From positions 1 to 20,566 of the IMG/VR virus record IMGVR_UViG_3300021959_009794: a DNA stretch of 20,566 nt; one strand, given 5' to 3'. Source of the DNA: a virus. Each line of letters begins with the position of its first letter. Position 1 is the first letter of the stretch. The position numbers and the translations under genes are program-made. The notes beneath the pieces are model-generated. The model had not been told where the DNA came from. It was given only the letters and a program-made list of their open reading frames with translations, and made no database searches. Below, piece by piece: positions 60 to 18,063 of this stretch.

Positions 60-875
60 ATGGCACATTGTGTAGTAAGTTTAAGTGGTGGAATGGATAG
101 CAGCACCCTATTGTTAAGAGCTATCGAAAAGTATGATTCTGTAACAGCTATATCTTTTGATTATGGTCAAAAACATAGAGTAGAGCTTGAAAGAGCTCAA
201 CAATTAGTTGATTATATCAATGAAAATTGCCCAGCAGATGAAAATTGTTTTAATGGGTGTACAGTTAATTACCGTCAAATTAAATTAGATGGACTAGTAG
301 ATTTGCTAGATTCAGCTTTGGTTTCAGGTGGGGAAGACGTACCAGAAGGACATTATGAACAAGATAATATGAAAGAAACAGTTGTTCCTAATAGGAATAA
401 AATGTTTGCTTCAATAGTACAAGCAGTAGCCTTATCTGTAGCAAATAGAACAGAAGATGTTTGTGATATTGCTTTAGGTATTCATGCTGGTGATCACGCA
501 GTTTATCCTGATTGTAGACAAGAATTTAGAGATGCAGATGATGCAGCTTTTAGAATGGGGAATTGGGATGCTGATAGAGTAGGGTACTTTACTCCTTATT
601 TAGATACTGATAAATTTGGTATTTTACAGGATGGAGAAAAGTTATGTGAAGTATTAGGTATTGATTTTAATGAAGTATATAAAAGAACAAATACATCATA
701 TAAACCTTACCCAAGTGGTAATAGCGATTATAAATCAGCATCTAGTGTTGAACGTATAGAAGCATTTATTTTATTAGGAAGACCTGATCCAGTACAGTAT
801 GAAGATGAAACAGGAGAAGTTGGATACGAAGTTGCAAAAACTCATGTTGAGAAGGTTCTTGCTGAATACGTATAA
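60..875 (+). CDS. queC: QueC-like 7-cyano-7-deazaguanine (preQ0) synthase lacking the zinc cysteines
   Basis: QueC converts 7-carboxy-7-deazaguanine (CDG) to preQ0 using ATP and ammonia, the last step of preQ0 synthesis. The 271-aa protein has the N-type ATP pyrophosphatase P-loop SGGMDS at residues 9-14, then VVPNRNKMF (family VPxRN), the LGIHAGDHAVYPDCRQEF block (family VNAxDYSGYPDCRPEF) and TPYLDTDKFGI. Length is slightly above the usual 220-235 aa. In typical QueC, four cysteines near the C-terminus (WSC, then CxxCxxC before VERKEAF) bind zinc. Here the first site is TNTSY (Ser213) and the segment just before VERIEAF (about 223-229) reads DYKSASS, so all four are missing. The flanking VER.EAF..GRPDP match is good, so this is a real variant and not a frameshift. 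Queue genes queD, queE and folE follow downstream. The family call is firm; activity without zinc is unknown. Confidence 0.93.
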   Translation: MAHCVVSLSGGMDSSTLLLRAIEKYDSVTAISFDYGQKHRVELERAQQLVDYINENCPADENCFNGCTVNYRQIKLDGLVDLLDSALVSGGEDVPEGHYEQDNMKETVVPNRNKMFASIVQAVALSVANRTEDVCDIALGIHAGDHAVYPDCRQEFRDADDAAFRMGNWDADRVGYFTPYLDTDKFGILQDGEKLCEVLGIDFNEVYKRTNTSYKPYPSGNSDYKSASSVERIEAFILLGRPDPVQYEDETGEVGYEVAKTHVEKVLAEYV

Positions 876-898
876 TACTCAAAATATATACATAAATA
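847..898 (+). promoter_or_regulatory. candidate promoters ahead of the 48-aa gene and tRNA-Gln
   Basis: Two weak signals sit at the end of queC. TTG at 847-849 is followed by 21 bases and CGTATAAT (TATAAT at 871-876), a variant of the (T/G)TG-N20-TATATT element found elsewhere in the window. CATAAATA at 891-898 differs by one base from the T4 late -10 TATAAATA and lies 15 bases before the ATG at 914. Either could drive the 48-aa gene and the tRNA. This is pattern matching only. Confidence 0.35.
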
Positions 899-913
899 CG
901 TAAAATTAAAGTA

Positions 914-1060
914 ATGACAACAAATCAACAATCAAACAACGGACAAACCCAAATCAATCAAGCTAGAGGGTCGTTCAACAACAAAGTATCTTCCTATAGT
1001 ATGTTAGGAAAATCTAAAAAAATTGCCTGGGATAGCGCAAGAAGAAACAGGTCAATTTAA
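914..1060 (+). CDS. 48-aa hypothetical protein, polar and basic
   Basis: ATG at 914 opens a 48-codon frame ending TAA at 1058-1060, eight bases before the tRNA. The protein is rich in Asn, Gln and Ser in its first half (MTTNQQSNNGQ) and basic at the end (KSKKIAWDSARRNRSI). There is no membrane segment and no motif I recognise. An A-rich leader (taaaattaaagta) precedes the start, as for most genes here. It is probably a real small phage gene, because it fills the gap between queC and the tRNA without overlap, but function is unknown. Confidence 0.6.
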   Translation: MTTNQQSNNGQTQINQARGSFNNKVSSYSMLGKSKKIAWDSARRNRSI

Positions 1061-1068
1061 GGGTTAAA

Positions 1069-1141
1069 TGTCTTATGGTGTAATTGGTAACACGTCTGTT
1101 TTTGGTACAGAAGAGTCTAGGTTCGAGACCTAGTAAGACAA
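1069..1141 (+). tRNA. tRNA-Gln (anticodon TTG)
   Basis: A complete cloverleaf can be read by eye: acceptor TGTCTTA (1069-1075) pairs perfectly with TAAGACA (1134-1140). The D stem is GTGT/ACAC (1078-1081, 1090-1093). The anticodon stem TCTGT/ACAGA (1095-1099, 1107-1111) encloses loop TTTTGGT with anticodon TTG at 1102-1104. Variable loop AGAGT; T stem CTAGG/CCTAG (1117-1121, 1129-1133) with loop TTCGAGA; discriminator A at 1141. CCA is not encoded (the next bases are CAA), so the host must add it. The anticodon reads CAA, in keeping with an AT-rich phage. It has no G34, so it is not itself a queuosine acceptor despite lying among queuosine-pathway genes. Confidence 0.95.
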
Positions 1142-1152
1142 CAAGAAGTTAT

Positions 1153-1389
1153 ATGAAAAAATTTATAGAATTCGCTCTAATTTGGTACAGCCAACAAATG
1201 GCAATTCCATTTTGGGTTGTAGGGCATATCCACCTTAGTATAAATACCTATAAAGACCTTCATGAAATACTTACTAGTTTAGGTTTAAACCTTCTAGTAG
1301 CAATTGGGTTTATAATAGATTATAGAAAAACAACAAAAAGTTATGAAAAAACAAGAACTACCAGACGCAAAAAAACACCAACAAATTAG
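1153..1389 (+). CDS. 78-aa small membrane protein
   Basis: The open frame extends upstream into the tRNA, so I place the start at the ATG at 1153, 11 bases after the tRNA and preceded by AGTTAT, a leader shared with other starts in the window. The 78-aa product has hydrophobic stretches around residues 5-21 (FALIWYSQQMAIPFWVV) and 40-52 (LGLNLLVAIGFII), then a strongly basic tail (YRKTTKSYEKTRTTRRKK). Two membrane passes with the basic tail in the cytoplasm is the likely layout. Its 3' end overlaps the next small membrane gene by 47 bases in another frame. Function is unknown. Confidence 0.65.
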   Translation: MKKFIEFALIWYSQQMAIPFWVVGHIHLSINTYKDLHEILTSLGLNLLVAIGFIIDYRKTTKSYEKTRTTRRKKTPTN

Positions 1390-1507
1390 CTTTATAAAAT
1401 CAGGAATTCGTATCTTAGGATATGGAGCTTTATGGTATAGCTTGGATATTGCAGTTATTTTACTTATATTGAGTGAAATAGTAGGAATAGGAGAAGAATT
1501 AGTATAA
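1343..1507 (+). CDS. 54-aa small membrane protein of a type recurrent in marine T4-like phages
   Basis: ATG at 1343 follows AAAAAGTT and opens a 54-codon frame ending TAA at 1505-1507. The protein has a polar start (MKKQELPDAKKHQQ), then a hydrophobic section with conserved-looking GIRILGYGALWYSL and a membrane segment around residues 36-48 (DIAVILLILSEIVGI), and an acidic end (EELV). I recall close relatives of the MKKQELPD...LGYGAL pattern in many marine T4-like phages, always as an uncharacterised small gene. It overlaps the preceding membrane gene by 47 bases, which suggests coupled translation. A role in the host envelope is only a guess. Confidence 0.75.
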   Translation: MKKQELPDAKKHQQISFIKSGIRILGYGALWYSLDIAVILLILSEIVGIGEELV

Positions 1508-1523
1508 CAATTAAAAATTAAAT

Positions 1524-1766
1524 ATGAGTAAAATTTATTATTTTAGTGCACCTTGGTGTGGTCCTTGTAAAATGTTAGGACCCGTAATGGATAAAAGTGG
1601 GTTGCCTTTTCAAAAAATTAATGTTGATGAAGATTCAACTTTATCAGCCAAATATGGAATTAGAAATGTACCTACTCTAGTAAAAGTAGATTCTAATGGT
1701 ACAGAAATTAGTAGGCTAGTGGGAAATAACCCATTAGATAAAATTAAAAATTGGTATAATGGGTAA
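1524..1766 (+). CDS. Thioredoxin-like protein
   Basis: A compact 80-aa thioredoxin fold, shorter than the usual ~105 aa host thioredoxin and near phage glutaredoxin/thioredoxin size. The active site WCGPCK is at residues 11-16 (Cys12, Cys15), with the cis-proline motif VPT at 49-51 and the expected INVDED strand at 32-37. It probably reduces disulfides in the cytoplasm, for instance for a ribonucleotide reductase outside this window; the partner is not visible here. The stop overlaps the queD start by 8 bases, so the two are likely translated together. The fold and active site are clear; the physiological substrate is inferred. Confidence 0.92.
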   Translation: MSKIYYFSAPWCGPCKMLGPVMDKSGLPFQKINVDEDSTLSAKYGIRNVPTLVKVDSNGTEISRLVGNNPLDKIKNWYNG

Positions 1767-2223
1767 ATTTCAATCAAGTAAGGTATTTGACGGTTTTAGT
1801 ACAGTGTTTCGTCAACATTCAGCAGAAAACACACACTGTAGGTTTGTACATGGCTATGGCATTTCATTTAAGGTTTATTTTGAAGGTGAATTAGATCATA
1901 GAAATTGGGTTTGGGATTTTGGAGGAATGAAAAGAGCTAAAACCTTAATAGATGGTAAAACACCAAAAGCATGGATGGATTATATGTTTGATCATACTAT
2001 GATTGTAGCAGAAGATGACCCTGAAGTAGAAGCATTTAAACAAATGGGTACCGCAGGTGTAGCACAAGTAAGAATAATCCCAGCTACTGGAGCAGAAAAA
2101 TTTGCTGAGTATATTTATGGTAAACTTAATGAATTTGTTAAAACTGAAACTGATAATAGAGTAAGAGTTATTAAAGTTAAGTTTATGGAACATGGAAAAA
2201 ATGCAGCTTATTACTGCGAATAG
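1759..2223 (+). CDS. queD: QueD-like 6-carboxy-tetrahydropterin synthase
   Basis: QueD turns 7,8-dihydroneopterin triphosphate, the FolE product, into 6-carboxy-tetrahydropterin. The 154-aa protein has the family block F17-RQ-H20...H26-C27-RFVHGY-G, followed by FKVYFEGELDHRNWVWDFGGMK (family LD..g.v.DF) and the D-H-T segment (FDHTMIVAEDDP) and a late E-H pair (MEHGKN). C27 and H31 fall where the catalytic Cys and a zinc His are expected, but the usual HGH is HGY (Tyr33), a change I also recall from a QueD-like branch in proteobacteria and marine phages. The start overlaps the thioredoxin gene and queE follows 39 bases later. The family is clear; exact zinc ligands are uncertain. Confidence 0.9.
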   Translation: MGKFQSSKVFDGFSTVFRQHSAENTHCRFVHGYGISFKVYFEGELDHRNWVWDFGGMKRAKTLIDGKTPKAWMDYMFDHTMIVAEDDPEVEAFKQMGTAGVAQVRIIPATGAEKFAEYIYGKLNEFVKTETDNRVRVIKVKFMEHGKNAAYYCE

Positions 2224-2262
2224 AGTTATAACAGTGAATAAAAAACCACTTAAAAAAATTAT

Positions 2263-3051
2263 ATGGAACACAAGCAATTAAAGCGTATTGAGGATTACGA
2301 TAAAAACCTCCCGATTGTAGAAATCTACACTGCAGTACAATCAGAAGGATCAAGAGCAGGATACCCAACAGTAGTAATTAGAACAACAGGATGTACTCAC
2401 AGATGTTATTTCGGTGAAGGTGGTTGGTGTGATTCTTGGTATACTAGCATCCATCCAGAAAAAGGACATTTTAATTTTAATGATATTATTAAAGCATATG
2501 AGGACAACCCCCATATCAAAGAGATGATGTTAACAGGAGGATCTCCTACTATGCATCCTGCTTTAGTAAACGAATTAACACACTTTGCACATGAAAAAGA
2601 TATATTTATCACTATCGAGACTGAAGGCTCGCATTTTCTTCCCACTGATTATCCGATTAATTTATTATCGATTTCTCCTAAATTCTCTAATTCAGTCCCT
2701 GTGGTCGGTGTTGAAACCCCTCAAGGTGGAATCACGGACGAAAGAATGGTAAAACGCCATAATAAGTTTAGACTTAATGGAGAAGCAATTGTAAAATCTA
2801 TAGAATATCATTCTGATTACCATATAAAACCCGTATGGGATGGTAAAGATCAATTAGCATTGGGTGAAATAATAGATTTTATTCGAATGTTAGATGTACC
2901 TCAAGATAAAGTATGGTTTATGCCTGCTGGAGATTCAAGAGAAGGGTTATTTAAATCTTACCCACTAGTATTTGATTGGGTTAGAGATAATGGTTATAGA
3001 ATGACTTGGAGACCACATATTATTGCTTTTGAGGACCAGCGAGAAGTATAG
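2263..3051 (+). CDS. queE: QueE-like 7-carboxy-7-deazaguanine synthase (radical SAM)
   Basis: QueE is the radical SAM enzyme that rearranges 6-carboxy-tetrahydropterin to 7-carboxy-7-deazaguanine using a 4Fe-4S cluster and S-adenosylmethionine. Key features in 262 aa: EIYTAVQSEGSRAGYPTVVI (20-39, family EIF.SvQGEG...G.P.vFvR), the cluster site C44-THR-C48-YFGEGGW-C56-DSWYT, and LTGGSPTMHP (family TGGEP). The cluster motif is CX3CX7C instead of the usual CX3CX2C, five residues having been added before the WCDS that normally follows. No Shine-Dalgarno is present; the start follows an A-rich run. The stop shares its last base with a GTG start of the next small ORF. The assignment is firm; the loop is unusual for cellular QueE. 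Confidence 0.93.
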   Translation: MEHKQLKRIEDYDKNLPIVEIYTAVQSEGSRAGYPTVVIRTTGCTHRCYFGEGGWCDSWYTSIHPEKGHFNFNDIIKAYEDNPHIKEMMLTGGSPTMHPALVNELTHFAHEKDIFITIETEGSHFLPTDYPINLLSISPKFSNSVPVVGVETPQGGITDERMVKRHNKFRLNGEAIVKSIEYHSDYHIKPVWDGKDQLALGEIIDFIRMLDVPQDKVWFMPAGDSREGLFKSYPLVFDWVRDNGYRMTWRPHIIAFEDQREV

Positions 3052-3080
3052 TGGATAAGCAAGAAGCCCTTCGTATATTA
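3051..3080 (+). promoter_or_regulatory. promoter-like element upstream of folE
   Basis: GTG at 3051-3053, 20 bases, then TATATT at 3074-3079 inside TTCGTATATTA. This is the same arrangement as at five other places in the window, but lies 95 bases before the folE ATG and within a possible small ORF. It is the member with the longest leader, so it is less certain. Confidence 0.4.
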
Positions 3081-3191
3081 GAGGAAATAGAAGAGAATAT
3101 CAATGTCTGTTGTGCCATAACAATGGAACCAGATGAAGTATTAGTATTAGTAGATAAATTAAAAAGTTATATAAATGGAGAACAAACGTAG
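3051..3191 (+). CDS. 46-aa hypothetical protein with GTG start
   Basis: A GTG overlapping the last base of the queE stop opens a 46-codon frame ending TAG at 3189-3191, 17 bases inside folE. The product is acidic and probably helical (DKQEALRILEEIEENINV, then EPDEVLVLVDKLKSYING). It fills an otherwise empty 123-base gap and uses overlap at both ends, typical of phage gene packing. The non-ATG start and small size keep confidence moderate. The same DNA carries a promoter-like element (TTCGTATATTA at 3070-3080), so this stretch could instead be a folE leader. Confidence 0.45.
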   Translation: MDKQEALRILEEIEENINVCCAITMEPDEVLVLVDKLKSYINGEQT

Positions 3192-3870
3192 AAAAGTTCA
3201 CGAAGAATTAGAAGTAGTAAAAGTAGGTTATGCAAATGGAGTTGCTGAAGGATTTCCCTTCAATGATGAAGAAAAGTTAAAAATGATTGATAAAGCTGAA
3301 ACAGCTTATGGTCAATTTTTAGATGCATTAAAATGTGATTGGAGAGATGATCCCAATTCAATGGAAACACCCCGTCGTGTAGCTAAAGCATATGTAAATG
3401 ATTTATGGGCTGGTCGTTACACAGCAATGTCTCCAATTACATCATTCCCAAGTGATGGTTATGATGGTATTGTTATTGAACGTAATATACCGTTAACTTC
3501 AATGTGTTCTCACCACCATCAAACAATTGGAGGTGTTGTTCATATTGGTTACATTGCAGGAGAAGGTGGTCAAGTAATTGGATTATCTAAATTAAATAGA
3601 ATTGTAGAATTATTTGGTCGTAGAGGAGCAATACAAGAACAATTAACATCAGCTATCCATAATGCTGTAGATAAAATTACAGATGGGAATAAAGGTGTTA
3701 TTGTTACTATAGTTGGAACACACAATTGTGTTAGCTGTAGAGGAGTTAAACATCAAGGTGCAGCAATGGTTACTACTAAGGCATCAGGGGTATTTAGAGA
3801 AAACGATAATTTATCTCGTAAAGAGTTTTTTGATAGTTTAAAAATTAATAACGGAGGACATAACATATAA
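3175..3870 (+). CDS. folE: GTP cyclohydrolase I
   Basis: FolE hydrolyses GTP to 7,8-dihydroneopterin triphosphate, the first step of both folate and 7-deazaguanine synthesis. At 231 aa it is full length (E. coli 222). Motifs in order: ETPRRVAKAYV, SMCSHHHQTIGGVVHIGYI with zinc ligands C111 and H114, GLSKLNRIVELFGRRGAIQE, and THNCVSCRGVKHQGA with C185 as the third zinc ligand, then MVTTKASGVF. All residues expected for a type IA enzyme are seen. Overlap with the upstream mini-ORF and the 3-base gap to the phosphoribosyltransferase suggest one operon. In this setting it most likely feeds QueD-QueE-QueC for preQ0 rather than folate. Confidence in the family is very high. Confidence 0.96.
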   Translation: MENKRRKVHEELEVVKVGYANGVAEGFPFNDEEKLKMIDKAETAYGQFLDALKCDWRDDPNSMETPRRVAKAYVNDLWAGRYTAMSPITSFPSDGYDGIVIERNIPLTSMCSHHHQTIGGVVHIGYIAGEGGQVIGLSKLNRIVELFGRRGAIQEQLTSAIHNAVDKITDGNKGVIVTIVGTHNCVSCRGVKHQGAAMVTTKASGVFRENDNLSRKEFFDSLKINNGGHNI

Positions 3871-5146: not shown

Positions 5147-6856
5147 ATGTATAAAAAGTGCTATTCCACTAGGTTAAAAAATAATAAATTTAAAATCCAT
5201 TTATGGGATGAAGGTGGATATGATGAGATTGAGTGGACTAATTATGCCTATAAAGAATGTAGAGAAGATAAAGCAACCCATAGGGGAATAAATGGTGAAT
5301 ATTTACTTAAAACACATCAATGGTATAAAACAGATTCAAACTTACACTTTCATGATATCCCTCCTTATCAAAAATTTTTAATTGAAAAATATGGAACAAA
5401 TGATGCTCCTTCAACGGGACATAGAGAATTATTTTTTGATATTGAGTGTGAAATAGGAGGAGCACTTACTGAAGAATACATTGAAAGTGCACCCATGCCT
5501 ATTACTTCTATCGCTTATTGGGATAAAACACCTGATAAATGGGTTATTTTAATTTTAGATAGAAAAAATGAATTATCTTATAAGAAAATTGATGGTAAAG
5601 AAGTTATACCTATAAGAACTGAAAGAGATTTACTATTAAAATTTATAGAAAACTTTAGAGAAATAAACCCAGATATTTTAATAGGTTATAACAGTGATTA
5701 TTTTGATATTCCTTATTTATATTACAGAATGTGTAATGTAATAGGAAAGGATTATGCTAGTTATCTTTCACCTATTAATAAAGTAAATGCTAAGAAAAAT
5801 AACCAATACTTTTTTAAACAAAATCAATATGTTGATATAGTAGGAGTTGAATCTTTAGATTATATTCGTTTACACAAAAAATACCATTGGAAAGATGAAC
5901 CTAGTTGGAAACTAGATGCTGTTGGTTTAAAATATGCTAATTTAGGAAAGGTTGAATATGAAGGAAATTTAGATCAACTTTTTTCAAATGATATAAATAA
6001 ATTTATTGAGTATAACTTTCGTGATGTTGAAATATTACAAAAATTAGATGAAAAACTTCAATATATTGCATTAACAAAGAATTTAGCACATAAGGGTAAA
6101 CACAATTACAGTGAAGTATATGCTAATAGTAAAACCCAAGATGGAGCAATTTCAGCTTATTTATTAGACCAAGATATAGTCCCACCACCTAAAGAGCAAA
6201 ACCCACAAAAGAAAGATAGTTATGCTGGAGGATACCTTTTTTGCCCCAAAGCAGGATTGTATAAGTATATGTTTGATGAAGATTTAACATCGCTATATCC
6301 CTCTATAATAATGTCTATAAACATAGGTAAGGAAACATTTGTAGGGCGTATTGTAGATGAAGATGACCGTAATAATAGATTGGGACTTAACGATTTAAAA
6401 TCTAAAGACCCTAAAGAAGAACTATTAGTTGAAAATAGTAAGCAACAAAGAACAGTTGTTACCGTAAGTAAGTTAATAGAAATAATTGAAACACAGAAAC
6501 TAGCTATAGCAGCTAACGGTTCAATGTTTAGAACAGATAAGGAATCAGTTTTATCTACTATTTTAAAGAAATGGTTTAAAGAAAGAGTTGTATATAAAAA
6601 TCGTATGAAAAAAGCTTATAAAGCTGGAGATAAACAATTAGGTGAATATAATCATTTAATGCAGTATACAATGAAAATTCTATTAAATAGTTTATATGGT
6701 GCTACTGCTTTACCTTCATTTAGATATGGTATGAATTTCCAAACTTTAAGTGAAGCAATTACTTTATCAGGACACAGAATTATACAAGAATCTGCCTTAT
6801 GTGCCAATAGACATATGAATAAAGTTATACGTGGAGAATTAAAATTAGATATATAA
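5147..6856 (+). CDS. Family B DNA polymerase, N-terminal fragment (gp43-like, exonuclease plus motifs A and B)
   Basis: The first 569 aa of a T4 gp43-type replicative polymerase. Proofreading exonuclease motifs: Exo I FDIEC (D98, E100), Exo II NSDYFDIPYL (N182, D187), Exo III YNFRD (Y289, D293). Polymerase motif A is EDLTSLYPSII with metal-binding D379; motif B is KILLNSLYGA at 510-519. The reading frame stops after RGELKLDI, before motif C, which lies on a separate gene at 7476. The stop overlaps the ATG of the cupin gene (TAATG). Together the two parts are 880 aa, close to T4 gp43 (898), so little or nothing is lost at the break. No intein motif is seen at the end. The product must pair with the second fragment to make a complete palm active site. 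Confidence 0.95.
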   Translation: MYKKCYSTRLKNNKFKIHLWDEGGYDEIEWTNYAYKECREDKATHRGINGEYLLKTHQWYKTDSNLHFHDIPPYQKFLIEKYGTNDAPSTGHRELFFDIECEIGGALTEEYIESAPMPITSIAYWDKTPDKWVILILDRKNELSYKKIDGKEVIPIRTERDLLLKFIENFREINPDILIGYNSDYFDIPYLYYRMCNVIGKDYASYLSPINKVNAKKNNQYFFKQNQYVDIVGVESLDYIRLHKKYHWKDEPSWKLDAVGLKYANLGKVEYEGNLDQLFSNDINKFIEYNFRDVEILQKLDEKLQYIALTKNLAHKGKHNYSEVYANSKTQDGAISAYLLDQDIVPPPKEQNPQKKDSYAGGYLFCPKAGLYKYMFDEDLTSLYPSIIMSINIGKETFVGRIVDEDDRNNRLGLNDLKSKDPKEELLVENSKQQRTVVTVSKLIEIIETQKLAIAANGSMFRTDKESVLSTILKKWFKERVVYKNRMKKAYKAGDKQLGEYNHLMQYTMKILLNSLYGATALPSFRYGMNFQTLSEAITLSGHRIIQESALCANRHMNKVIRGELKLDI

Positions 6857-7197
6857 TGGGAATAGAAAGTAGACCTTGGGGAATGTATGAAGTATTATTA
6901 GATTCTCCTGAATGTAAAGTAAAAAGAATAACAGTAGCACCTGGTCAAAGGTTATCATATCAATACCATTATAAAAGAAAAGAAACTTGGACTGTAGTTA
7001 AAGGTAATTTAACAATTATTCTAGATGGTGAGAAAGTATTTAGAGGACCAGGACAATCAATAAGGATACCATTAGGAGCTAAACATAGAGCCTGGAATGA
7101 AACAGGTGGAGTAGTACAATTTATAGAAGTACAAACAGGAACATACTTTGGTGAAGACGATATTGTTAGAATCGAAGATGATTATAAAAGAGAATAA
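6856..7197 (+). CDS. Cupin, ManC C-terminal/type II phosphomannose isomerase-like
   Basis: A stand-alone 113-aa cupin. The order RPWGMYEVLL, CKVKRITVAPGQRLSYQYHY, R.ETWTVVKG, GPGQSIRIPLGAKHRAWN and FIEVQTGTYFGEDDIVRIED follows the C-terminal domain of ManC-type mannose-1-phosphate guanylyltransferases (type II phosphomannose isomerase) very closely. In those proteins this domain converts fructose-6-phosphate to mannose-6-phosphate; here the nucleotidyltransferase half is absent. The metal-site pattern is Q.H...E, with a second His in AKHR. It sits inside the split polymerase gene, overlapping its stop by one base, with no obvious tie to replication. A link to the glycosyltransferases from 16615 is possible. 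Family confident, reaction inferred. Confidence 0.88.
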   Translation: MGIESRPWGMYEVLLDSPECKVKRITVAPGQRLSYQYHYKRKETWTVVKGNLTIILDGEKVFRGPGQSIRIPLGAKHRAWNETGGVVQFIEVQTGTYFGEDDIVRIEDDYKRE

Positions 7198-7198
7198 T

Positions 7199-7462
7199 AT
7201 GGCATTGAAAAAACAATCAATTAGAAAAAACCAACACATATCATCAGGAGGTAATTACCTTCAAAAAGATGAAATTATTCTAAGGAGTGAAAGTTGGAGT
7301 GATTCACAAACAAACTTCTTTAAGAAAATGCTTAAACAAGGGGGTGAATTTAAAGTTGCGGGTATTAAGTATAAAGTAGAATTAGACGAAAGAGATGATG
7401 TTGATTCTAAAGGGGAACGACCAAAAACAGTCCCAAAATTACCCGGAGAAAGAACATTTTAA
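7199..7462 (+). CDS. 87-aa hypothetical protein inside the split polymerase locus
   Basis: The open frame reaches back to 7148, but the ATG at 7199, one base after the cupin stop, is the natural start. The 87-aa product is basic at the N-terminus (MALKKQSIRKNQ), has a central block DEIILRSESWSDSQTNFFKKMLKQGGEFKVAGIKYKVEL and a charged, proline-rich end (RPKTVPKLPGERTF). No domain is recognised and there is no membrane segment. It lies between the cupin and the C-terminal polymerase gene, 13 bases from the latter, so it is made from the same transcript. Confidence 0.75.
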   Translation: MALKKQSIRKNQHISSGGNYLQKDEIILRSESWSDSQTNFFKKMLKQGGEFKVAGIKYKVELDERDDVDSKGERPKTVPKLPGERTF

Positions 7463-7475
7463 AAATATTATATAA

Positions 7476-8411
7476 ATGAAACATATACAAGATACACCTT
7501 GGTGGATTTGCGATGAAGGAGATGATAATTATTGTGCCTATGTGGACACAGATTCTAATTATTTTAATGCCGAACCTTTATTACTTCATTTATACCCTAA
7601 TTTTGAAGAATTTACTGCTAAAGAAAAAGATAATCTTTTAGAAAAAGTAGCACTAAAATACCAAGATATTATCAATGATGATTATGATAGATTAGCACGT
7701 GAAGCATTTAATGTGCAAGATCATAGACTAGAAATGAAAACAGAATGTGTTATACGTTCAGCTTATTTTAGAGCAAACAGAAGATATGCACAATGGATTA
7801 CAAAGCAAGAAGGTATAGAAAAAGAATCTTTAGATATTAAAGGTTTAGAATTTATGAAGGCAAATTTTCCCCCTATTTTAGGAAAGTTTTTTAATGATAT
7901 ACTCCAACAAGTATTAAAGGGTGAAGAAAAATCTAGTATTTTAGATCAAATTAAAATATTTAAAAAACAAATATTAGACGGTACTATTTCATTATCACAG
8001 CTAGGTAATCCTACAGCAGTTAAAAAATTAGGAAAATATAGTGGAACTAAAGCTAGAGCAGGTGAAATGTTTACTGAAATACTCAAAGGAGCTCCTGCCC
8101 CAGTACGAGCAGCAATCCGTTATAATGACTTGCTAAAACTTTGGTCATTAGATAAAAAACATAATTTAATAACACAAGCAGATAAAGTAAAATGGATTTA
8201 TCTAAAAGATAATCCATATAAAATAGAATCATTAGCCTTTCAAGATCATGATATACCTGAAAAGATACAAGATTTTTTAGATAAATACGCTAATCGTAGA
8301 AAAGTATTTGAGTCTATATTATTAAACAAATTAGAAGGATTTTTTAGTGATTTACAATGGTCATTAGATTTAAACCCTTATAAAAACCAATTTAATTTCT
8401 TTGAGATATAA
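7476..8411 (+). CDS. Family B DNA polymerase, C-terminal fragment (motif C, thumb, clamp-binding tail)
   Basis: This 311-aa protein supplies the part missing from the 5147 gene. Motif C is YVDTDS at residues 22-27, with catalytic D24 and D26. Further on come the KTECVIRSAYFRANRRYAQW and LDIKGLEFMKANFPP blocks (the KKRYA/KG region of family B polymerases) and a thumb-like C-terminal third. The tail NQFNFFEI resembles a clamp-binding peptide, and the next gene is the clamp. It begins with its own ATG about 23 residues before motif C, after an A-rich leader ending TATAAATG. It is not a pseudogene: both halves are intact and uninterrupted. The arrangement recalls the two-subunit PolB of Methanothermobacter and split gp43 in some Aeromonas T4-like phages. 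Confidence 0.94.
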   Translation: MKHIQDTPWWICDEGDDNYCAYVDTDSNYFNAEPLLLHLYPNFEEFTAKEKDNLLEKVALKYQDIINDDYDRLAREAFNVQDHRLEMKTECVIRSAYFRANRRYAQWITKQEGIEKESLDIKGLEFMKANFPPILGKFFNDILQQVLKGEEKSSILDQIKIFKKQILDGTISLSQLGNPTAVKKLGKYSGTKARAGEMFTEILKGAPAPVRAAIRYNDLLKLWSLDKKHNLITQADKVKWIYLKDNPYKIESLAFQDHDIPEKIQDFLDKYANRRKVFESILLNKLEGFFSDLQWSLDLNPYKNQFNFFEI

Positions 8412-8434: not shown

Positions 8435-9166
8435 ATGATAAATAAAAACCTATTACAAAGCACAATATCTAAATATTATTTAGGTGACTTACACAAATCA
8501 GTTAAATGGAGAATTAAAGATGATTCGTTAACTGTTTATGCCCAAAGTGAAGGGTTAGTATGTAAAACAGTATTAAATACTTTTCCTGTACAAGATAGTG
8601 ATATAGGTGTATTTGATACCGATAAATTAGTCAAACTTTTATCTATTACTAATGGAGACTTACTAATGAGTTTAAGTGGTAATGGAGCATTAAAAAATGT
8701 TATGTATATTGAAGATGCTAATTTTAATTTAACTTATACACTTGCCGATCCATTAGCAATAGGGAAAACAAGTTGGGTTACAGACCCCGAATTTGATGTT
8801 GAATTAGAATTAGATGAAGAAGATATTACCCATTTAATAAAAGCTAAGGGGGCGTTAGATGCCGCTAGTGTGCTTGTAAAAACAACTGAAAACTTAGATG
8901 GTTCTTTAGTATGTGATTTTATGTTTAGCCCCGAAGCTATTGAGGACAATTATAGTAACAAGATATCATACCAAATCAAAGGTAAAATAAAGGAAGAAGG
9001 AATGCGCTTACCTTTTAATGCACTTAAATTTAGTGAAATATTAAAAAACAATAAAGATATGGATAACGCCAAGCTATCAATAGCACCAAATGGTATGATG
9101 AAAATCCATTTCACCTCAGAAAATATAGAAAGTACTTATTATTTATTAAGAAACGAATTAAATTAA
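8435..9166 (+). CDS. DNA polymerase sliding clamp (T4 gp45-like)
   Basis: A 243-aa protein at the place and of the size of T4 gp45 (228 aa), directly after the polymerase. The sequence is typical of clamps: an acidic, strand-rich two-domain chain (WRIKDDSLTVYAQSEGLVCKTVL..., FDTDKLVKLLSITNGD, a mid-protein YTLADPLAIG linker, then EEDITHLIKAKGAL and a final LSIAPNGMMKIHF strand). Clamps share little sequence, so the call depends on pattern and neighbours: polymerase before it, clamp loader at 13134 and 14303. The ring would tether the split polymerase and, by analogy with T4, also support late transcription. A putative promoter ends 6 bases before the ATG. Confidence 0.85.
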   Translation: MINKNLLQSTISKYYLGDLHKSVKWRIKDDSLTVYAQSEGLVCKTVLNTFPVQDSDIGVFDTDKLVKLLSITNGDLLMSLSGNGALKNVMYIEDANFNLTYTLADPLAIGKTSWVTDPEFDVELELDEEDITHLIKAKGALDAASVLVKTTENLDGSLVCDFMFSPEAIEDNYSNKISYQIKGKIKEEGMRLPFNALKFSEILKNNKDMDNAKLSIAPNGMMKIHFTSENIESTYYLLRNELN

Positions 9167-9903: not shown

Positions 9904-10323
9904 ATGAGTACATTATTCAATGAACGTACACCGTTCGACTTACTATTCCGTAACCTATTTAAGGCAGACGGCGTTTTTCAACCAACAACGTTTGAAAACA
10001 AACAACCACATCCACTAGATATTTTTTATGACGAAGAAGGACTTCACTTTGAAGTTGCCTGTACTGGTCTAACTAAAAAAGATATTCAATTAGAAATTGA
10101 TGGAGATCTTTTAAAAATTATCTATGATAAACCCAATGAAGAAGAATTTGATTACAGTGGCTACATCTATAAGGGATTAGCTAAACGTTCTTTTAACTTA
10201 GGTTATAAAGTAGCAGCTAAATTTGAACTTGAGAAATTAGAGGCAGAAATGAAAGATGGTTTGCTTCATCTATTTATTCCAATTGCGGAATCTAAAAAAG
10301 CAAAAACAATTAAAATTAAATAA
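9904..10323 (+). CDS. Hsp20 small heat-shock protein
   Basis: A 139-aa alpha-crystallin-type chaperone that would hold unfolding proteins in the cytoplasm. The alpha-crystallin domain spans about residues 36-130: LDIFYDEEGLHFEVACTGL (A/P..vd..d..y.i....G), KDIQLEIDGDLLKII, YIYKGLAKRSFNLGY (the G.f.R.f.Lp strand) and the signature-like AEMKDGLLHLFIPI (A...nGvL.i.iP). The N-terminal part is short (MSTLFNERTPFDLLFRNLF). The end KTIKIK matches the family's k.i.i tail. Small Hsp20 genes are regular members of marine T4-like phages. It starts the chaperone block with GroES and GroEL downstream. Confidence 0.93.
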   Translation: MSTLFNERTPFDLLFRNLFKADGVFQPTTFENKQPHPLDIFYDEEGLHFEVACTGLTKKDIQLEIDGDLLKIIYDKPNEEEFDYSGYIYKGLAKRSFNLGYKVAAKFELEKLEAEMKDGLLHLFIPIAESKKAKTIKIK

Positions 10324-10341
10324 AGGTATACACAAAAAAGC

Positions 10342-10371
10342 GTGTCCTAGCGCAATATTATTCGTATATTC
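10342..10371 (+). promoter_or_regulatory. promoter-like element upstream of the GroES/GroEL operon
   Basis: GTG at 10342-10344, 20 bases, TATATT at 10365-10370 inside ATTCGTATATTC, 22 bases before the ATG at 10393. The downstream leader (TAAATAAATAAGTTAT) is nearly the same as that before the polymerase gene. This would drive the 106-aa gene, groES and groEL. Confidence 0.62.
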
Positions 10372-10392
10372 ACGTCTAAATAAATAAGTTAT

Positions 10393-10713
10393 ATGACAAC
10401 AAAAAGAAAGTCTATTAAGACTATTACCGATCCTTTACTGGAACCTTATTTTATTACTAAGGATGAATACAGTTACACCATTAAAATGAATGTAACTTCA
10501 GATGCCACCCACTTTAGGGCTAAAGGTAAAACTAAGACTTATGAAAAGTCTTTATATTATTATCCCACAATAGGAGCAGCTCTAATGAGAATTTCTGAAT
10601 TACAATCCAATAATAAGGATTACAATCAATTAAGTGAATACATAGAGAATTATAAACAAATAACACTAAATTTAAAACAGTACGTAGATGAAAGAGCTAA
10701 GAGCATTTTATGA
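10393..10713 (+). CDS. 106-aa hypothetical protein upstream of groES
   Basis: An intact 106-codon gene with its own promoter-like element and leader. The product is basic at the start (MTTKRKSIKTI), contains DEYSYTIKMNVTSDATHFRAKGKTKTYEKSLYYYPTIGAALMRI and ends in a helical, polar stretch (YIENYKQITLNLKQYVDERAKSIL). No catalytic motif, signal peptide or membrane segment is visible. Its last 26 bases overlap groES in a different frame, so it is translationally tied to the chaperonin genes. A co-chaperone role would be speculation. Confidence 0.75.
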   Translation: MTTKRKSIKTITDPLLEPYFITKDEYSYTIKMNVTSDATHFRAKGKTKTYEKSLYYYPTIGAALMRISELQSNNKDYNQLSEYIENYKQITLNLKQYVDERAKSIL

Positions 10714-10993
10714 TGCAGTTATCGTTAAACCCATAGAAGTAGAAGAAACTGTCTATGGTAACATTATCGTTCCTGATATGGGGAAAGATACAAATACCTT
10801 TGGTGAAGTTATTGCCGTAGGTCCTGGTAGATATACTATCAGTGGAGTACTATTAGTACCACAAGTAAAAATTGGAGATAAAGTAGTCCTACCAACACAA
10901 GGATTTACTAAATTACCATTTGAAGGTGTAGAGTATTTCATAGGCCCAGAAAACCAAGTATTAGCAAAAGTAGAAGAATCAACTAATCAATAA
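10688..10993 (+). CDS. groES: GroES-type co-chaperonin
   Basis: A 101-aa chaperonin-10. The start at 10688 is chosen because it gives the expected first strand (KELRAFYDAVIVKPIE, family lrPL.DRVlVk..e); starting at 10711 would remove it. The mobile-loop region lies around residues 20-31 (ETVYGNIIVPDM), followed by GEVIAVGPGRY (family G.VvAVGpG), VKIGDKVVLPTQGFTKL and EYFIGPENQVLAKVE (family y.i....dilA.ie). It caps the GroEL ring, here encoded 7 bases downstream. T4 uses a distant GroES analogue, gp31, with host GroEL; this phage has a recognisable GroES instead. Confidence 0.93.
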   Translation: MKELRAFYDAVIVKPIEVEETVYGNIIVPDMGKDTNTFGEVIAVGPGRYTISGVLLVPQVKIGDKVVLPTQGFTKLPFEGVEYFIGPENQVLAKVEESTNQ

Positions 10994-11000
10994 TTAAGAA

Positions 11001-12635
11001 ATGGAAACAAAAATTCATTACGGCAAAGATGCCAGAACAAAATTACAATCAGGTATAAATAAACTTGCTGATGCAGTTGTTGCTACTTTAGGACCTAATG
11101 GGAGAAATGTAGTAATTTTTAGAGGAGCACAAGAAGCACCTCAATCAACTAAAGATGGAGTTACAGTTGCAAAGTCTTTTTTATTAGACGATCCTAGTGA
11201 GGAATTAGGAGTATTACTAATTAAACAAGCAGCAGTTAAAACCGCTGAAAAAGCAGGAGATGGTACAACAACTTCTACCTTATTAGCAAGGGAGATGATT
11301 AAAAAAGGATTATCACATCTTGATAATGGTGAAAACGCTGTCGAAATTAAAAGACAAATTGAATCAGCAATCAAGGAAGTTACATCTAAACTAAGAGAAT
11401 CAGTATCTGAAGATATTTCAGCAGAAGATCAATTAGAACAAATTGCAACTATATCTGCTAACAATGACCCAGAAACAGGTAAACTAATTGCTCAATCAAT
11501 TGATAAAGTAGGCTTAGAAGGTGTAGTGCATATTGAAGAATCTAAAACAGGAGATACTTACCTGGAAACAGTAGAAGGGATGCAGTTTGATAGAGGTTAT
11601 AAATCACCTTATTTTGTAACTGACAATAATACTATGTCTTGTACTTTAGATAACCCCGCTATTTTAATCCTAGATCAAAGACTAAATACAGTTAAAGAAT
11701 TATTACCTATATTACAAGCAGTATCTGCACAAGGAAAATCATTATTAGTTATTGCAGAAGATATTGATAACGAAGCTTTAGCTACTTTAATTGTAAACAA
11801 AATGAGAGGTACAGTTAATGTATGTGCTGTAAAAGCACCTGATTTTGGAGACAGAAGAAAACTTGTTTTAGAAGATATTGCCAACTTAACTGGTGGTGTT
11901 GTATTTAGTAAAGATAAGGGTATGAAACTTGATAAGTTTAGTTGGGATTGGTTTGGTGAAGCAAGAATTGCAACCATTACTAAAGATCAAACAACTATTG
12001 TAGATGGTAAAGGAGATGCGGATACTATAACAAAACGTGTTGATGAATTACAAGAACAAATTCTAAAAAGTAAGACACCATATGAACAAGAACAACTACA
12101 AAACAGGTTATCTAAATTTGTTGGTGGAGTAGCTATTGTACACGTAGGTGGAAGTACTGAAACTGAAATGTTAGAGAAAAAAGATAGAGTAGATGATGCT
12201 TTACATGCTACAAAAGCAGCAATTGAAGAAGGTATAGTACCTGGAGGTGGAAAAGCTTTATTAGTTGCACGTGAATCTATTACTAAAGGTAATATTGGTG
12301 CACAAATTGTATATGATGCTTGTGGTATGCCATTCGAACAAATTTTAACTAATGCTGGTATATCAAATACAGATTCTAGTATTTTAGCACGTGATATTAT
12401 TAAAAATAATAATGTTTGGGAATCATATAATCTTAAAACAGAAGGAATTGAAAACTTCAAAGAAGCAGGTATTATTGACCCAACTAAAGTAACAAGATTA
12501 GCACTAGAAAATGCTGCGTCAGTAGCAGGAACAGTATTATTAACTGAGTGTACTTTAACTCAAGATAAAACATCTCAACTAGAAAAAATGAGAATGTTAG
12601 ATTCTAATGCCCAAATGGGTGCCGGAATGATGTAA
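11001..12635 (+). CDS. groEL: GroEL-type chaperonin
   Basis: A full-length 544-aa Hsp60/GroEL (E. coli 548 aa) that would fold proteins inside a double ring with ATP. Conserved sites are intact: LGPNGRNVVI at 30-39, TKDGVTVAKS at 50-59, the ATPase motif GDGTTTSTLLA with D87 at the E. coli position, GMQFDRGYKSPYFVTD in the apical domain, RVDDALHATKAAIEEGIVPGGG in the nucleotide-binding part, and the terminal AQMGAGMM tail like GGM repeats. Some usual residues vary (for example ANLTGGVVFSKDKGMKL), so it is diverged but appears functional. groES is directly upstream. GroEL is uncommon in phages; likely clients are phage proteins such as capsid or polymerase parts. Confidence 0.96.
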   Translation: METKIHYGKDARTKLQSGINKLADAVVATLGPNGRNVVIFRGAQEAPQSTKDGVTVAKSFLLDDPSEELGVLLIKQAAVKTAEKAGDGTTTSTLLAREMIKKGLSHLDNGENAVEIKRQIESAIKEVTSKLRESVSEDISAEDQLEQIATISANNDPETGKLIAQSIDKVGLEGVVHIEESKTGDTYLETVEGMQFDRGYKSPYFVTDNNTMSCTLDNPAILILDQRLNTVKELLPILQAVSAQGKSLLVIAEDIDNEALATLIVNKMRGTVNVCAVKAPDFGDRRKLVLEDIANLTGGVVFSKDKGMKLDKFSWDWFGEARIATITKDQTTIVDGKGDADTITKRVDELQEQILKSKTPYEQEQLQNRLSKFVGGVAIVHVGGSTETEMLEKKDRVDDALHATKAAIEEGIVPGGGKALLVARESITKGNIGAQIVYDACGMPFEQILTNAGISNTDSSILARDIIKNNNVWESYNLKTEGIENFKEAGIIDPTKVTRLALENAASVAGTVLLTECTLTQDKTSQLEKMRMLDSNAQMGAGMM

Positions 12636-12663
12636 ATTAATATTAATTAATAAATAAATAAAA

Positions 12664-12828
12664 ATGACAAAACAGGAATTATTTGAGGCGATTGAAGAAA
12701 ATTTCAATACCTTAGCAGAAAACAATGCAGGAACAACAAAAGCCTCACAACAACGAGCTCGTAAAGCAGCAATGGCTATTAAAAACCTAATTACAGATTA
12801 TAAAAAAGCATCTGTAAAAGAACAATAA
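12664..12828 (+). CDS. 54-aa histone H1-like (Hc1-like) protein
   Basis: ATG at 12664 follows an A-rich leader (aataaataaataaaa) and encodes 54 aa ending TAA at 12826-12828. The chain is helical: an acidic half (MTKQELFEAIEENFNTLAEN), then a basic half KASQQRARKAAMAIKNLITDYKKA. The layout with 'G..KA...R.RKA...IK.L...yrk' is that of the short Bacteroidota Hc1/histone H1-like proteins. It may bind phage DNA in the cell. It ends seven bases before a strong terminator and closes the chaperone block. The match is by memory of the pattern, so moderately sure. Confidence 0.72.
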   Translation: MTKQELFEAIEENFNTLAENNAGTTKASQQRARKAAMAIKNLITDYKKASVKEQ

Positions 12829-15392: not shown

Positions 15393-16364
15393 TTGGCGAA
15401 AAAACTCCCAAGTATAGTAAAAGAAATAAGAAATAATCCACCTTCACCGGTGAATTATGCTTATCAAAAGAATATATCGTATTCTCAAATGTCTATTTAT
15501 AGAGGTTGCCAACATCGTTGGAAACTCCAATATAAAGATAAGATAAAACGATTTACATCTTCGATTCATACTGTATTTGGAACAGCTATTCACGAAGCGA
15601 TGCAACATTATTTAGATGTAGCTTATGAAAAGTCTTTCGCAGCTGCCGATAGGGAAATAGATATACAAGAATACTTTCAAGAAGCTTATATAAGCGAATA
15701 TCAAACTCAATATAAAAAGAATAATGATTCTCATTTTTCTTCTGCTGTTGAAATGAGAGAGTTTTTTGAAGATGGGGTTGCTATTTTAGAATGGTTTAAG
15801 AAAAAACGTAGTAGATATTTTAGTAAAAAAGGTACATATTTAGTTGGTTGTGAAATACCTATTGTAATAGCACCAAATAAAATGTTAAATAACGTGTTAT
15901 ATATGGGGTATCTTGATGTTGTCACATATCATGAAGCAACAGAGACATTTAAGATAATTGACATAAAAACAAGTACTGGGGGATGGAATGATTATGCTAA
16001 AAAAGATGAAAATAAACAATTCCAATTACTCCTCTACAAACAATATTTCTCAGAACAATATGGAATACCTTTAGATAAGATTGAAATTGAATTTTTCATT
16101 CTTAAAAGAAAAGTATTAGATCCTGATGATGAAAAACTTATGTCACCCTATCAAGCTTATAGGGTGCAGCAATTTACACCACCTAGTGGTAAAATTAAAT
16201 TGGGTAGAGCAAAAACTGCTATTAATGATTTTATTAGTGAATGTTTTAACTCTAGTGGGAAAATAAAAGAAAAAGATTACCCAAAACAAGCTTCAAAATG
16301 GAATTGTAATTTCTGTCCTTATAAAGAGGATAAAGAATATTGTGGTGAAGGTATTATATACTAA
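15393..16364 (+). CDS. Cas4/RecB-like PD-(D/E)XK nuclease with Fe-S cysteines
   Basis: A 323-aa nuclease. It opens with S-Y-S-Q-M-S-IYRGC39QHRWKLQY, then FGTAIHEAMQHYL (the GT..H motif), GYLD175V, and D190-I-K192 as the catalytic D...DxK, followed by QFQLLLYKQYF (Q..Y helix). Three C-terminal cysteines C305-NF-C308...C317 with C39 give the 1+3 pattern of the Fe-S cluster in Cas4 and AddB. The start is TTG at 15393, one base after the previous stop; the next ATG (residue 33) would cut into the conserved C39 region. No CRISPR array or cas genes are present, so a role in replication, recombination or host DNA breakdown is more likely. Confidence 0.88.
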   Translation: MAKKLPSIVKEIRNNPPSPVNYAYQKNISYSQMSIYRGCQHRWKLQYKDKIKRFTSSIHTVFGTAIHEAMQHYLDVAYEKSFAAADREIDIQEYFQEAYISEYQTQYKKNNDSHFSSAVEMREFFEDGVAILEWFKKKRSRYFSKKGTYLVGCEIPIVIAPNKMLNNVLYMGYLDVVTYHEATETFKIIDIKTSTGGWNDYAKKDENKQFQLLLYKQYFSEQYGIPLDKIEIEFFILKRKVLDPDDEKLMSPYQAYRVQQFTPPSGKIKLGRAKTAINDFISECFNSSGKIKEKDYPKQASKWNCNFCPYKEDKEYCGEGIIY

Positions 16365-16384
16365 AATAATTATATACGTATACC

Positions 16385-16392
16385 TATAAATA
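16385..16392 (+). promoter_or_regulatory. T4 late-type promoter TATAAATA
   Basis: A perfect TATAAATA octamer in the 50-base gap after the nuclease gene, 22 bases before the ATG at 16415. This is the T4 late -10 consensus recognised through the gp55-type sigma factor. It differs from the TTCGTATATT elements and may mark a switch to late expression of the RHH-like and glycosyltransferase genes. Confidence 0.6.
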
Positions 16393-16414
16393 AACGTTAT
16401 TAAAAATAAAAATT

Positions 16415-16603
16415 ATGGCAGATGCTAAAAAAATGACACTAACTAGTGTTAAAGTGAAAAGTGAATTATTTGAAAATTTTAAAGTTGAATGTGTAAGAAG
16501 AAAATTCTCGTTCCAAAAACTTGCCGATCGTGCTTTGTTTTTGTACCTTACGGATGAAGATTTTAGAAAACAAATTTCAAATCAAACTAATCTTGAATTA
16601 TAA
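16415..16603 (+). CDS. 62-aa ribbon-helix-helix-like protein
   Basis: The 62-aa product starts with a polar tail and a strand (KMTLTSVKVKS), then helix ELFENFKVECVRRK, a turn with FSFQKLADRALFLYLTDEDF and a short end. Strand-helix-helix with this size is the ribbon-helix-helix DNA-binding layout (Arc/MetJ). I recall very similar small proteins with 'LTSVKV...F..FK......FSLQKL..R.L.LY..DE.FR' in marine T4-like phages. It may be a dimeric regulator. It is first behind the late-type promoter and before the glycosyltransferases. Confidence 0.78.
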   Translation: MADAKKMTLTSVKVKSELFENFKVECVRRKFSFQKLADRALFLYLTDEDFRKQISNQTNLEL

Positions 16604-16614
16604 ATTTTAAATAA

Positions 16615-18063
16615 ATGAAAAAAAGTTTTGAACACATTCCTAAAGAACAAAGGAAAAAAATATTATTAGTTTGTGACGATATTAGGGTACATTCAGGTGT
16701 TGCCACAGTTGCAAAAGAAATAGTAATTCATACAGCCCATCATTTCAACTGGGTAAATGTAGCAGGAGCTATTAAACACCCAGAAAAGGGAAAAACATTA
16801 GATATATCTCAATCTGTTAATACAGAAGCAAAAATAGAAGATGCTAATGTGAAATTGTATTGTGTAGATGGTTATGCTCAATCTATTGAAATACAACAGA
16901 TTTTATCTTTTGAAAAACCTGATGCAGTAATGTTAATTACAGATCCTAGATATTTTAAACATATTTTTAATATGGAGGATACTATTAGAAAACAATGTCC
17001 TCTAGTATATTTAAATATTTGGGATGATTACCCAGCACCAATGTATAATAAGCCTTTTTATGAGGCTTGTGATTTGTTAATGGGTATTTCAAAACAAACA
17101 GTAAATATTAATAAGTTAGTTTTAGATGGGGTTGATAATAGTAAAAGAGTATTTAAGTATGTTCCTCATGGTTTAAATCATGAACAATTTTACCCAATAA
17201 ATAAAGAACATGAAGAATTTGAGGAATTTCAAAAATTTAAAGAGGGTATTATAGGAAAAGATACTGAATTTGTAATGTTTTTTAATTCAAGAAATATTCG
17301 TAGAAAACAAATCCCAGATTCAATGTTAGCTTTTAGATCGTTTTTAGATTCTTTACCAAAAGCAAAGGCGGATAAATGTAAATTTATTTTACACACTGAT
17401 TTATCAACGGACCATGGTACAGATTTAGGAGCAGTAGCTGAATATCTGTTTGGAGAAAATTATGAAGAAAATATTGTTTTCTCACACGCAAAACTTTCAA
17501 GAAAACAGTTAAATTGGTTATATAACACAGCAGATGTTCAAATTCTAATCACTTCAAATGAAGGGTGGGGATTAACTCTTACAGAAGCAATGTTAACAGG
17601 TACCCCTACAATTTCTAATGTAACAGGAGGTATGCAAGACCAAATGAGATTTATTGATGAAAATGGTAAATGGTTTGAACCAAGTGCTGATGTTCCTTCT
17701 AACCATAGAGGTACTTATAAAGAACATGGTGAATGGGTATTTCCAGTTTATCCAACTTCAAGATCAGTACAAGGATCACCTCAAACACCTTATATATTTG
17801 ATGATAGATGTGCATGGGAAGATGTTTGTGATAGAATAAAAGAAGTATATGAACTAACACCTAAAGAACGTAAATCCAGAGGATTAAAAGGTAGAGAATG
17901 GGCATTAGGTGATGAAGCAGGGTTTACAGCAGAACACCAAGCTCAAAGAGTAATGGAAGCCTTTGATGAATTATTCTCAGTTTGGGAACCAAGAGGAGAT
18001 TATGAGATAGTTAATGCAACAGAGTATAAAGGAAGATTTTTAAACCATAAAATTACATATTAA
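16615..18063 (+). CDS. GT4-type glycosyltransferase
   Basis: A 482-aa GT-B fold glycosyltransferase. The N-terminal domain starts with KILLVCDDIRVHSGVATVAKEI (GvG-like acceptor loop) and contains KPDAVMLITDPRYF; the C-terminal domain has VPHGLNHEQFYPI, FFNSRNIRRKQIPDSMLAF and the EX7E motif in E316-GWGLTLT-E324-AMLTGTP, the retaining GT4 signature. It would transfer a sugar from an NDP-sugar; the acceptor could be phage DNA, a virion protein or host surface glycan. The stop shares one base with the next gene's ATG. Family clear, substrate unknown. Confidence 0.9.
   Translation: MKKSFEHIPKEQRKKILLVCDDIRVHSGVATVAKEIVIHTAHHFNWVNVAGAIKHPEKGKTLDISQSVNTEAKIEDANVKLYCVDGYAQSIEIQQILSFEKPDAVMLITDPRYFKHIFNMEDTIRKQCPLVYLNIWDDYPAPMYNKPFYEACDLLMGISKQTVNINKLVLDGVDNSKRVFKYVPHGLNHEQFYPINKEHEEFEEFQKFKEGIIGKDTEFVMFFNSRNIRRKQIPDSMLAFRSFLDSLPKAKADKCKFILHTDLSTDHGTDLGAVAEYLFGENYEENIVFSHAKLSRKQLNWLYNTADVQILITSNEGWGLTLTEAMLTGTPTISNVTGGMQDQMRFIDENGKWFEPSADVPSNHRGTYKEHGEWVFPVYPTSRSVQGSPQTPYIFDDRCAWEDVCDRIKEVYELTPKERKSRGLKGREWALGDEAGFTAEHQAQRVMEAFDELFSVWEPRGDYEIVNATEYKGRFLNHKITY

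What the first reader, a model, noticed from the sequence alone, without database searches (positions are those of the whole stretch)
5147..8411. Replicative DNA polymerase split in the palm, with two unrelated genes in the gap
Motifs A and B (catalytic D379) are on one protein and motif C (DTDS, D24/D26) on another. The total of 880 aa is near T4 gp43, so no part is lost. The gap holds a cupin and an 87-aa gene instead of a homing endonuclease, and its ends are tidy (TAATG overlap), so the split looks stable. It cuts at the same general place as the archaeal two-subunit PolB of Methanothermobacter, suggesting a recurrent tolerated breakpoint.
Basis: partly seen in the sequence, partly recalled or inferred. 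Interest (0 to 1): 0.65.

Follow-up and report, generated by a model that had tools for sequence, protein, structure and literature searches.

The report
Phage DNA polymerase made in halves
An uncultivated, T4-like group of marine phages makes its genome-copying enzyme as two separate protein pieces; the break is an old, inherited trait of the whole group, and other genes come and go in the space between the two pieces.

Summary
The family-B replicative polymerase lies on two ORFs: 5147-6856 (exonuclease, motifs A and B) and 7476-8411 (motif C). A cupin gene and an 87-aa gene lie between them. It is neither an assembly error nor decay. The same break occurs in all 138 curated relatives of three subclades, and both halves evolve under strong purifying selection (dN/dS mostly 0.03-0.14). 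Four related 158-164 kb contigs carry only the two halves and no intact PolB. The break falls in a predicted disordered loop between the helix after motif B and the motif C hairpin. I found no intein, intron or homing endonuclease. In one subclade the halves abut with ATGA or TAATG overlaps, so the inserted genes did not cause the split now seen there. In the window's subclade the 87-aa gene is always in the gap; the cupin and other cargo, mostly glycan or nucleotide-sugar type, vary. The nearest unsplit relatives are 51-53% identical (L139, L301). Most likely the halves are made from one mRNA and assemble into one polymerase, as shown for Aeromonas phage gp43A/gp43B; that split lies upstream of motif B. 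I rate it a new variant of a known kind. Assembly is inferred, not shown here.

The parts
5147..6856 (+). PolB N piece (569 aa): 3'-5' exonuclease, palm motif A (DxxSLYPS, D379), fingers and motif B (KILLNSLYG), ending just after the following helix
6854..6858 (+). stop/start overlap TAATG between PolB-N and the next gene; the equivalent junctions in relatives are mostly TAATG or ATGA
6856..7197 (+). cupin (mannose-6-phosphate isomerase C-terminal type), variable cargo found in about 16 of the loci of the subclade
7199..7462 (+). orf87 (87 aa), no known family or fold; in the gap in all 62 curated loci of the window's subclade; in most sister-subclade contigs tested a homologue lies about 7-11 kb upstream instead
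   Evidence: structure
7476..8411 (+). PolB C piece (311 aa): conserved start MKHxxDTPWWICD, motif C (YVDTDS, D24/D26), rest of palm, thumb and C-terminal tail
8435..9166 (+). sliding clamp (processivity factor), next gene in the replication module

Best explanation
The replicative family-B DNA polymerase of this T4-superfamily phage is a two-chain enzyme. The N chain carries proofreading, motif A and motif B; the C chain carries motif C, the rest of the palm and the thumb. They are made from one transcript, with stop/start overlaps favouring translational coupling. They assemble so that the motif A and motif C aspartates from different chains form one active site. The break is an old gene fission in an exposed loop, fixed in a clade of uncultivated marine phages. 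The junction later served as a place where whole genes were gained and lost without harming the enzyme. Shown: break position, clade-wide conservation, purifying selection, no intact copy in four contigs of 158-164 kb, zero-gap sister forms, unsplit nearest relatives. Inferred: coupling, assembly and activity of the pair.
For: Complementary halves of one profile. 138 curated split loci: 62 in subclade A, 65 in B, 11 in C. Both halves have dN/dS 0.03-0.14. Only the two halves, and no intact PolB, in contigs of 158-164 kb. Conserved ends CANRHMNKVxRxEIKLxI* and MKHxxDTPWWICD. ATGA or TAATG overlap between N and C in subclade B. The break maps to a loop of the unsplit homologue L139: helix 530-559, residues 569-577 with pLDDT under 50, DTDS at 587-590 between strands. 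The split group is monophyletic apart from unsplit L139/L301 (SH-aLRT 100). Precedent: split gp43A/gp43B of Aeromonas phage 25 co-purify and have polymerase activity (PMC2988022).
Against: No expression or binding data. The complex could not be modelled with these tools. L139/L301 fall weakly beside split subclade C (SH-aLRT 92), so two fissions or one re-fusion remain possible, although a single split clade is not rejected (AU p 0.438). The 164-kb contigs are of the sister subclade and are not certified complete; the window's own record is only 20.6 kb.
Confidence: 0.86

Rival explanations
1. The pieces are joined after transcription or translation, by a trans-splicing intron or a split intein (a 'fractured gene').
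For: Related phages do this: contig L122 has a split-intein-like break at motif C with a separate ORF between, and jumbo phage MIJ3 has a split PolB with intein (PMC6892783).
Against: No Rfam intron in the window or four related loci. The N piece ends in a conserved ordinary sequence and a stop, the C piece starts at a conserved Met, and no intein N- or C-terminal block is present. ATGA overlaps in subclade B leave no room for intein or intron sequence.
Confidence: 0.03
2. Decay or assembly artefact: a broken, non-functional polymerase, or a chimeric contig.
For: Each case alone is a metagenomic contig, and one relative (L035) has a premature stop in the C piece.
Against: The same junction occurs in well over 100 separately assembled contigs, and the split also appears in bacterial-bin contigs from other projects (L135, L136, L137, L140, L141). 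Strong purifying selection on both halves. Catalytic residues invariant.
Confidence: 0.03
3. The C piece (or the pair) has been kept for another role, for example regulation, and another polymerase copies the genome.
For: Genomes of the window's subclade are incomplete here.
Against: All exonuclease, motif A, B and C residues are kept in the pieces. The genes sit in the replication module next to clamp and clamp loader. The PolB search found only the two halves in 158-164 kb sister contigs. Other polymerase families were not searched.
Confidence: 0.06

Closest known systems
Split gp43A/gp43B of Aeromonas phages 44RR2.8t and 25 (PMC2988022; record NC_005135)
   Same: T4-superfamily PolB encoded as two adjacent cistrons, no intein; the two proteins are reported to co-purify and to be active
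   Different: 44RR is cut between motif A and motif B (43A ends before motif B, 43B carries motifs B and C) by a short untranslated spacer. Here the cut is between motifs B and C, is clade-wide, and the junction carries coding genes or a direct overlap.
Methanobacteriales two-subunit PolB3 (Kelman et al. 1999, cited in PMC4104785)
   Same: Stable two-gene PolB; both polypeptides required (recalled from the abstract, not read here)
   Different: Proposed to come from erratic intein excision (PMC4104785). No intein trace here. The exact break position was not compared on sequence.
Split-intein or 'fractured' PolB of jumbo phages, e.g. MIJ3 (PMC6892783); contig L122 here
   Same: PolB in two ORFs with another ORF between, in L122 at motif C
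   Different: There the pieces carry intein halves for protein trans-splicing; here none is present.
Huge phage LR756508 (L083)
   Same: PolB broken in the same loop before motif C, genes in a 3-kb gap
   Different: Carries intein-like insertions in motif B and inside motif C; only about 30% identical; independence of its break not established.
Split DNA polymerase of OM43 phages MEP401/MEP402 (PMC10580990)
   Different: Different phage lineage (related to Zobellviridae); homology of the small ORFs was not tested here.

Membership tests
T4-like family-B DNA polymerase (gp43, phrog_262) | Exonuclease domain plus palm motifs A, B and C in order over the whole profile | tested here: met
   N piece covers 93-567 and C piece 565-843 of 856; motif residues invariant
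T4-like family-B DNA polymerase (gp43, phrog_262) | Neighbouring clamp and clamp-loader genes, T4-type capsid in the genome | tested here: met
   Clamp at 8435 and clamp loader at 13101. Gp23 major capsid in G001, G003 and G004 (subclade B) and G010 (subclade A), E under 1e-72; not in the window itself, which is a fragment
44RR-type split gp43 (IC-UTS) | Break between motif A and motif B | tested here: not met
   Alignment
44RR-type split gp43 (IC-UTS) | Untranslated spacer between the two cistrons | tested here: not met
   Gap holds conserved ORFs, or stop/start overlap in subclade B
44RR-type split gp43 (IC-UTS) | The two proteins form an active complex | not testable with these tools
   No binding or activity data; reported for Aeromonas phage 25 in PMC2988022
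Fractured gene with split intein | Intein halves at the end of the N piece and start of the C piece | tested here: not met
   Conserved ordinary ends, no intein blocks, zero-gap forms
Fractured gene with split intein | Homing endonuclease between the pieces | tested here: not met
   Gap genes are cupin, orf87, DUF6165, cytidylyltransferase, DegT, GNAT and others
Group I/II intron interruption | Catalytic intron RNA at the junction | tested here: not met
   Rfam search at gathering score found only a tRNA
Methanobacteriales two-subunit PolB | Break at the same place in the palm | not tested
Far-T4 phages (clade 1) | T4-like replication genes with queuosine genes, GTP cyclohydrolase, phosphoribosyltransferase and heat-shock protein | tested here: inconclusive
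   Window has QueC/D/E, FolE, PRT and Hsp20, as listed for Far-T4 contigs (PMC4360716); no capsid-tree comparison made

The most novel reading that the evidence does not exclude
The junction is a functional slot rather than a neutral break. Orf87, which stays in the gap throughout the window's subclade and often overlaps the polymerase stop with its start, is a third component or regulator that times or aids assembly of the two polymerase chains. Separate synthesis of the chains would give the phage a control point over replication.
Probability: 0.12. Interest if true: 0.75.

Novelty: new variant of a known kind. Interest (0 to 1): 0.5.

Why it matters
The family-B polymerase palm is among the most conserved enzyme cores known. 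A whole phage clade that builds its active site from two chains, with an unsplit close relative, zero-gap split forms and forms with inserted genes, is a natural series for asking how a single-chain enzyme becomes a two-subunit one without intein or intron. The break site is also a lead for engineering split replicative polymerases. Annotation pipelines will call the pieces fragments, so such phages are easily misread.

Tried and rejected
Split intein, intron and homing endonuclease: rejected. Assembly error: rejected. Fold of orf87: AF2 mean pLDDT 72, pTM 0.52, and Foldseek against PDB gave nothing (best E 2.1). Scan of IMG/VR with the LR756508 C piece found no relative. AU tests did not settle whether there was one fission or two (p 0.438), nor whether LR756508 was split independently (p 0.343). 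The tree of orf87 is too short to settle vertical descent versus re-insertion; it hints that gap copies of subclades B and C nest among those of A. The Far-T4 paper was searched for 'split' and has none; no paper found describes this clade's split, but most subscription journals are not held.

Full report
The window and its record. The window is a 20,566-base IMG/VR virus record, and that record is all that is held of its genome. All the long ORFs named below are on the + strand. It carries a replication and nucleotide module: QueC, thioredoxin, QueD, QueE, FolE, a phosphoribosyltransferase, a MazG-like protein, PolB-N, cupin, orf87, PolB-C, sliding clamp, DUF6445, Hsp20, GroES, GroEL, clamp loader, exonuclease and glycosyltransferases. 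Clamp, clamp loader, cupin, DUF6445, MazG-like and exonuclease rest on profile searches. The other names come from reading the translations, and most match the same gene order in relatives.

PolB-N is 5147-6856 (569 aa) and PolB-C is 7476-8411 (311 aa). Against the phage PolB profile phrog_262 (856 positions) the N piece matches 93-567 and the C piece 565-843, so together they make one complete enzyme. The N piece has the exonuclease, motif A (D379) and motif B. The C piece has motif C (YVDTDS). These residues are invariant across diverse relatives. Between the pieces lie a cupin (PF01050, E 7e-29) and an 87-aa ORF without a family.

It is a clade trait, not an accident. Scans of IMG/VR and of GTDB genomes were read locus by locus. 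Three subclades are split. Subclade A (the window's) has 62 curated loci, all with orf87 in the gap. Subclade B has 65 loci; 56 have gaps of 50 nt or less, mostly ATGA or TAATG overlaps of the N stop with the C start, 5 have orf87 in the gap, and 4 have other inserts. Subclade C has 11 loci: 9 with orf87, 2 with direct overlap. Many contigs are near-identical, so these counts are not independent events. After clustering at 90% identity, 36 split representatives remained in the tree. The remaining 133 curated loci are unsplit: L139, L301 and the Microcystis phage Mel-JY01 group.

Order of events. The zero-gap forms show that the break does not require inserted genes. The split group plus L139/L301 is one clade with full SH-aLRT support. 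L139 and L301, one-piece enzymes (L139 is 51-53% identical to the window's pieces), are the nearest unsplit relatives found. Their exact place is unsettled. The best tree puts them beside subclade C (SH-aLRT 92), which would need two fissions or a re-fusion, but one split clade is not rejected (AU p 0.438).

Selection and redundancy. Pairwise dN/dS is 0.03-0.14 for both halves in all pairs tested, in the low range seen for the clamp (0.01-0.07). Contigs of 164, 164, 164 and 158 kb of subclade B contain the N and C pieces and no other PolB. Three of these look like nearly the same phage, so they count as about two genomes. Three of the four were tested for a T4-type Gp23 capsid and have it. The window's own subclade is represented only by contigs up to about 70 kb, each with just the two halves.

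Where the cut is. In an AlphaFold2 model of the unsplit L139 enzyme (moderate quality, pLDDT 68, pTM 0.41), residues 530-559 form the helix after motif B, 569-577 have pLDDT under 50, and DTDS (587-590) sits between two short strands. The cut therefore falls in a predicted flexible loop at the edge of the palm. In RB69 gp43 the matching helix aligns up to residue 609. The split of Aeromonas 44RR lies elsewhere, upstream of motif B. Huge phage LR756508 is cut in the same loop and also has intein-like insertions in motifs B and C. Contig L122 is interrupted at motif C by a split-intein-like arrangement with a free ORF. The region before motif C is thus broken more than once among related phages, but independence of LR756508 is not proven (AU p 0.343).

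The junction as a slot. In the gap, or directly after the N stop, relatives carry a cupin, DUF6165, cytidylyltransferase-like, DegT aminotransferase, GNAT, glycosyltransferase-like and formyltransferase proteins. Inserts in subclade B include proteins that read like Smr-domain and hexapeptide acetyltransferase proteins (by eye). The N stop usually overlaps the start of whatever gene follows. The PolB-C/clamp junction also takes inserts in some loci (for example L005, L009, L042), so insertion between replication genes is not unique to this gap. Orf87 recurs across the group. In five of the six longer subclade B records that were searched and lack it in the gap, counting the three alike ones separately, a homologue lies about 7-11 kb upstream of PolB-N, just before or a few kb before QueC in the two regions read. 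Its function is unknown, and the fold search found nothing.

How it most likely works. The two chains are translated from one mRNA, aided by stop/start overlaps, and assemble through the split palm, bringing the motif A and motif C aspartates together. This rests on precedent: gp43A and gp43B of Aeromonas phage 25 co-purify and are active (PMC2988022). Selection supports it, but it is not shown here. Protein or RNA splicing is excluded as far as sequence can.

Verdict. A genuine, stable, clade-wide two-chain family-B replicase with a break position different from the Aeromonas case and no intein. It is a new variant of a known kind. I did not find it described in the papers available.

Noticed in passing
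L122:6500-9100: PolB relative interrupted at motif C by a split-intein-like N half (GDTDS|CDSETLIRTDRG...), a separate ORF, and a C half ending ...GNDILIHNS: the classic fractured-gene arrangement.
   Followed up: partly
L083 (LR756508) 11800-12790 and 16140-17073: Huge phage PolB carries an intein-like insertion in motif B and another of about 312 aa inside motif C, and is also split just before motif C with about 3 kb of other genes between.
   Followed up: partly
L005, L009, L042, L056, L057 between PolB-C and clamp: A second insertion slot of about 0.9-1.7 kb between PolB-C and the sliding clamp in some relatives of the window.
   Followed up: no
L375:7257-7481 and L376:4821-5033: Homologue of orf87 upstream of QueC in phages whose polymerase junction has no gap: the gene has moved between two places in the replication module.
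   Followed up: partly
L035:3855: In-frame stop in the C piece of one relative (residue 186); could be a sequencing error or a decayed copy.
   Followed up: no
window 60-3870: QueC, QueD, QueE and FolE together suggest 7-deazaguanine synthesis for tRNA or DNA modification; queuosine genes are also reported for Far-T4 clade 1 contigs (PMC4360716).
   Followed up: partly
window 9904-12635: Phage-encoded chaperones: Hsp20, GroES and GroEL close together.
   Followed up: no
L136, L137, L138, L140: Relatives of the split polymerase occur in contigs binned with Flavobacteriaceae or Flavobacteriales MAGs, a weak hint at the host; another (L141) is binned with Pelagibacter.
   Followed up: no
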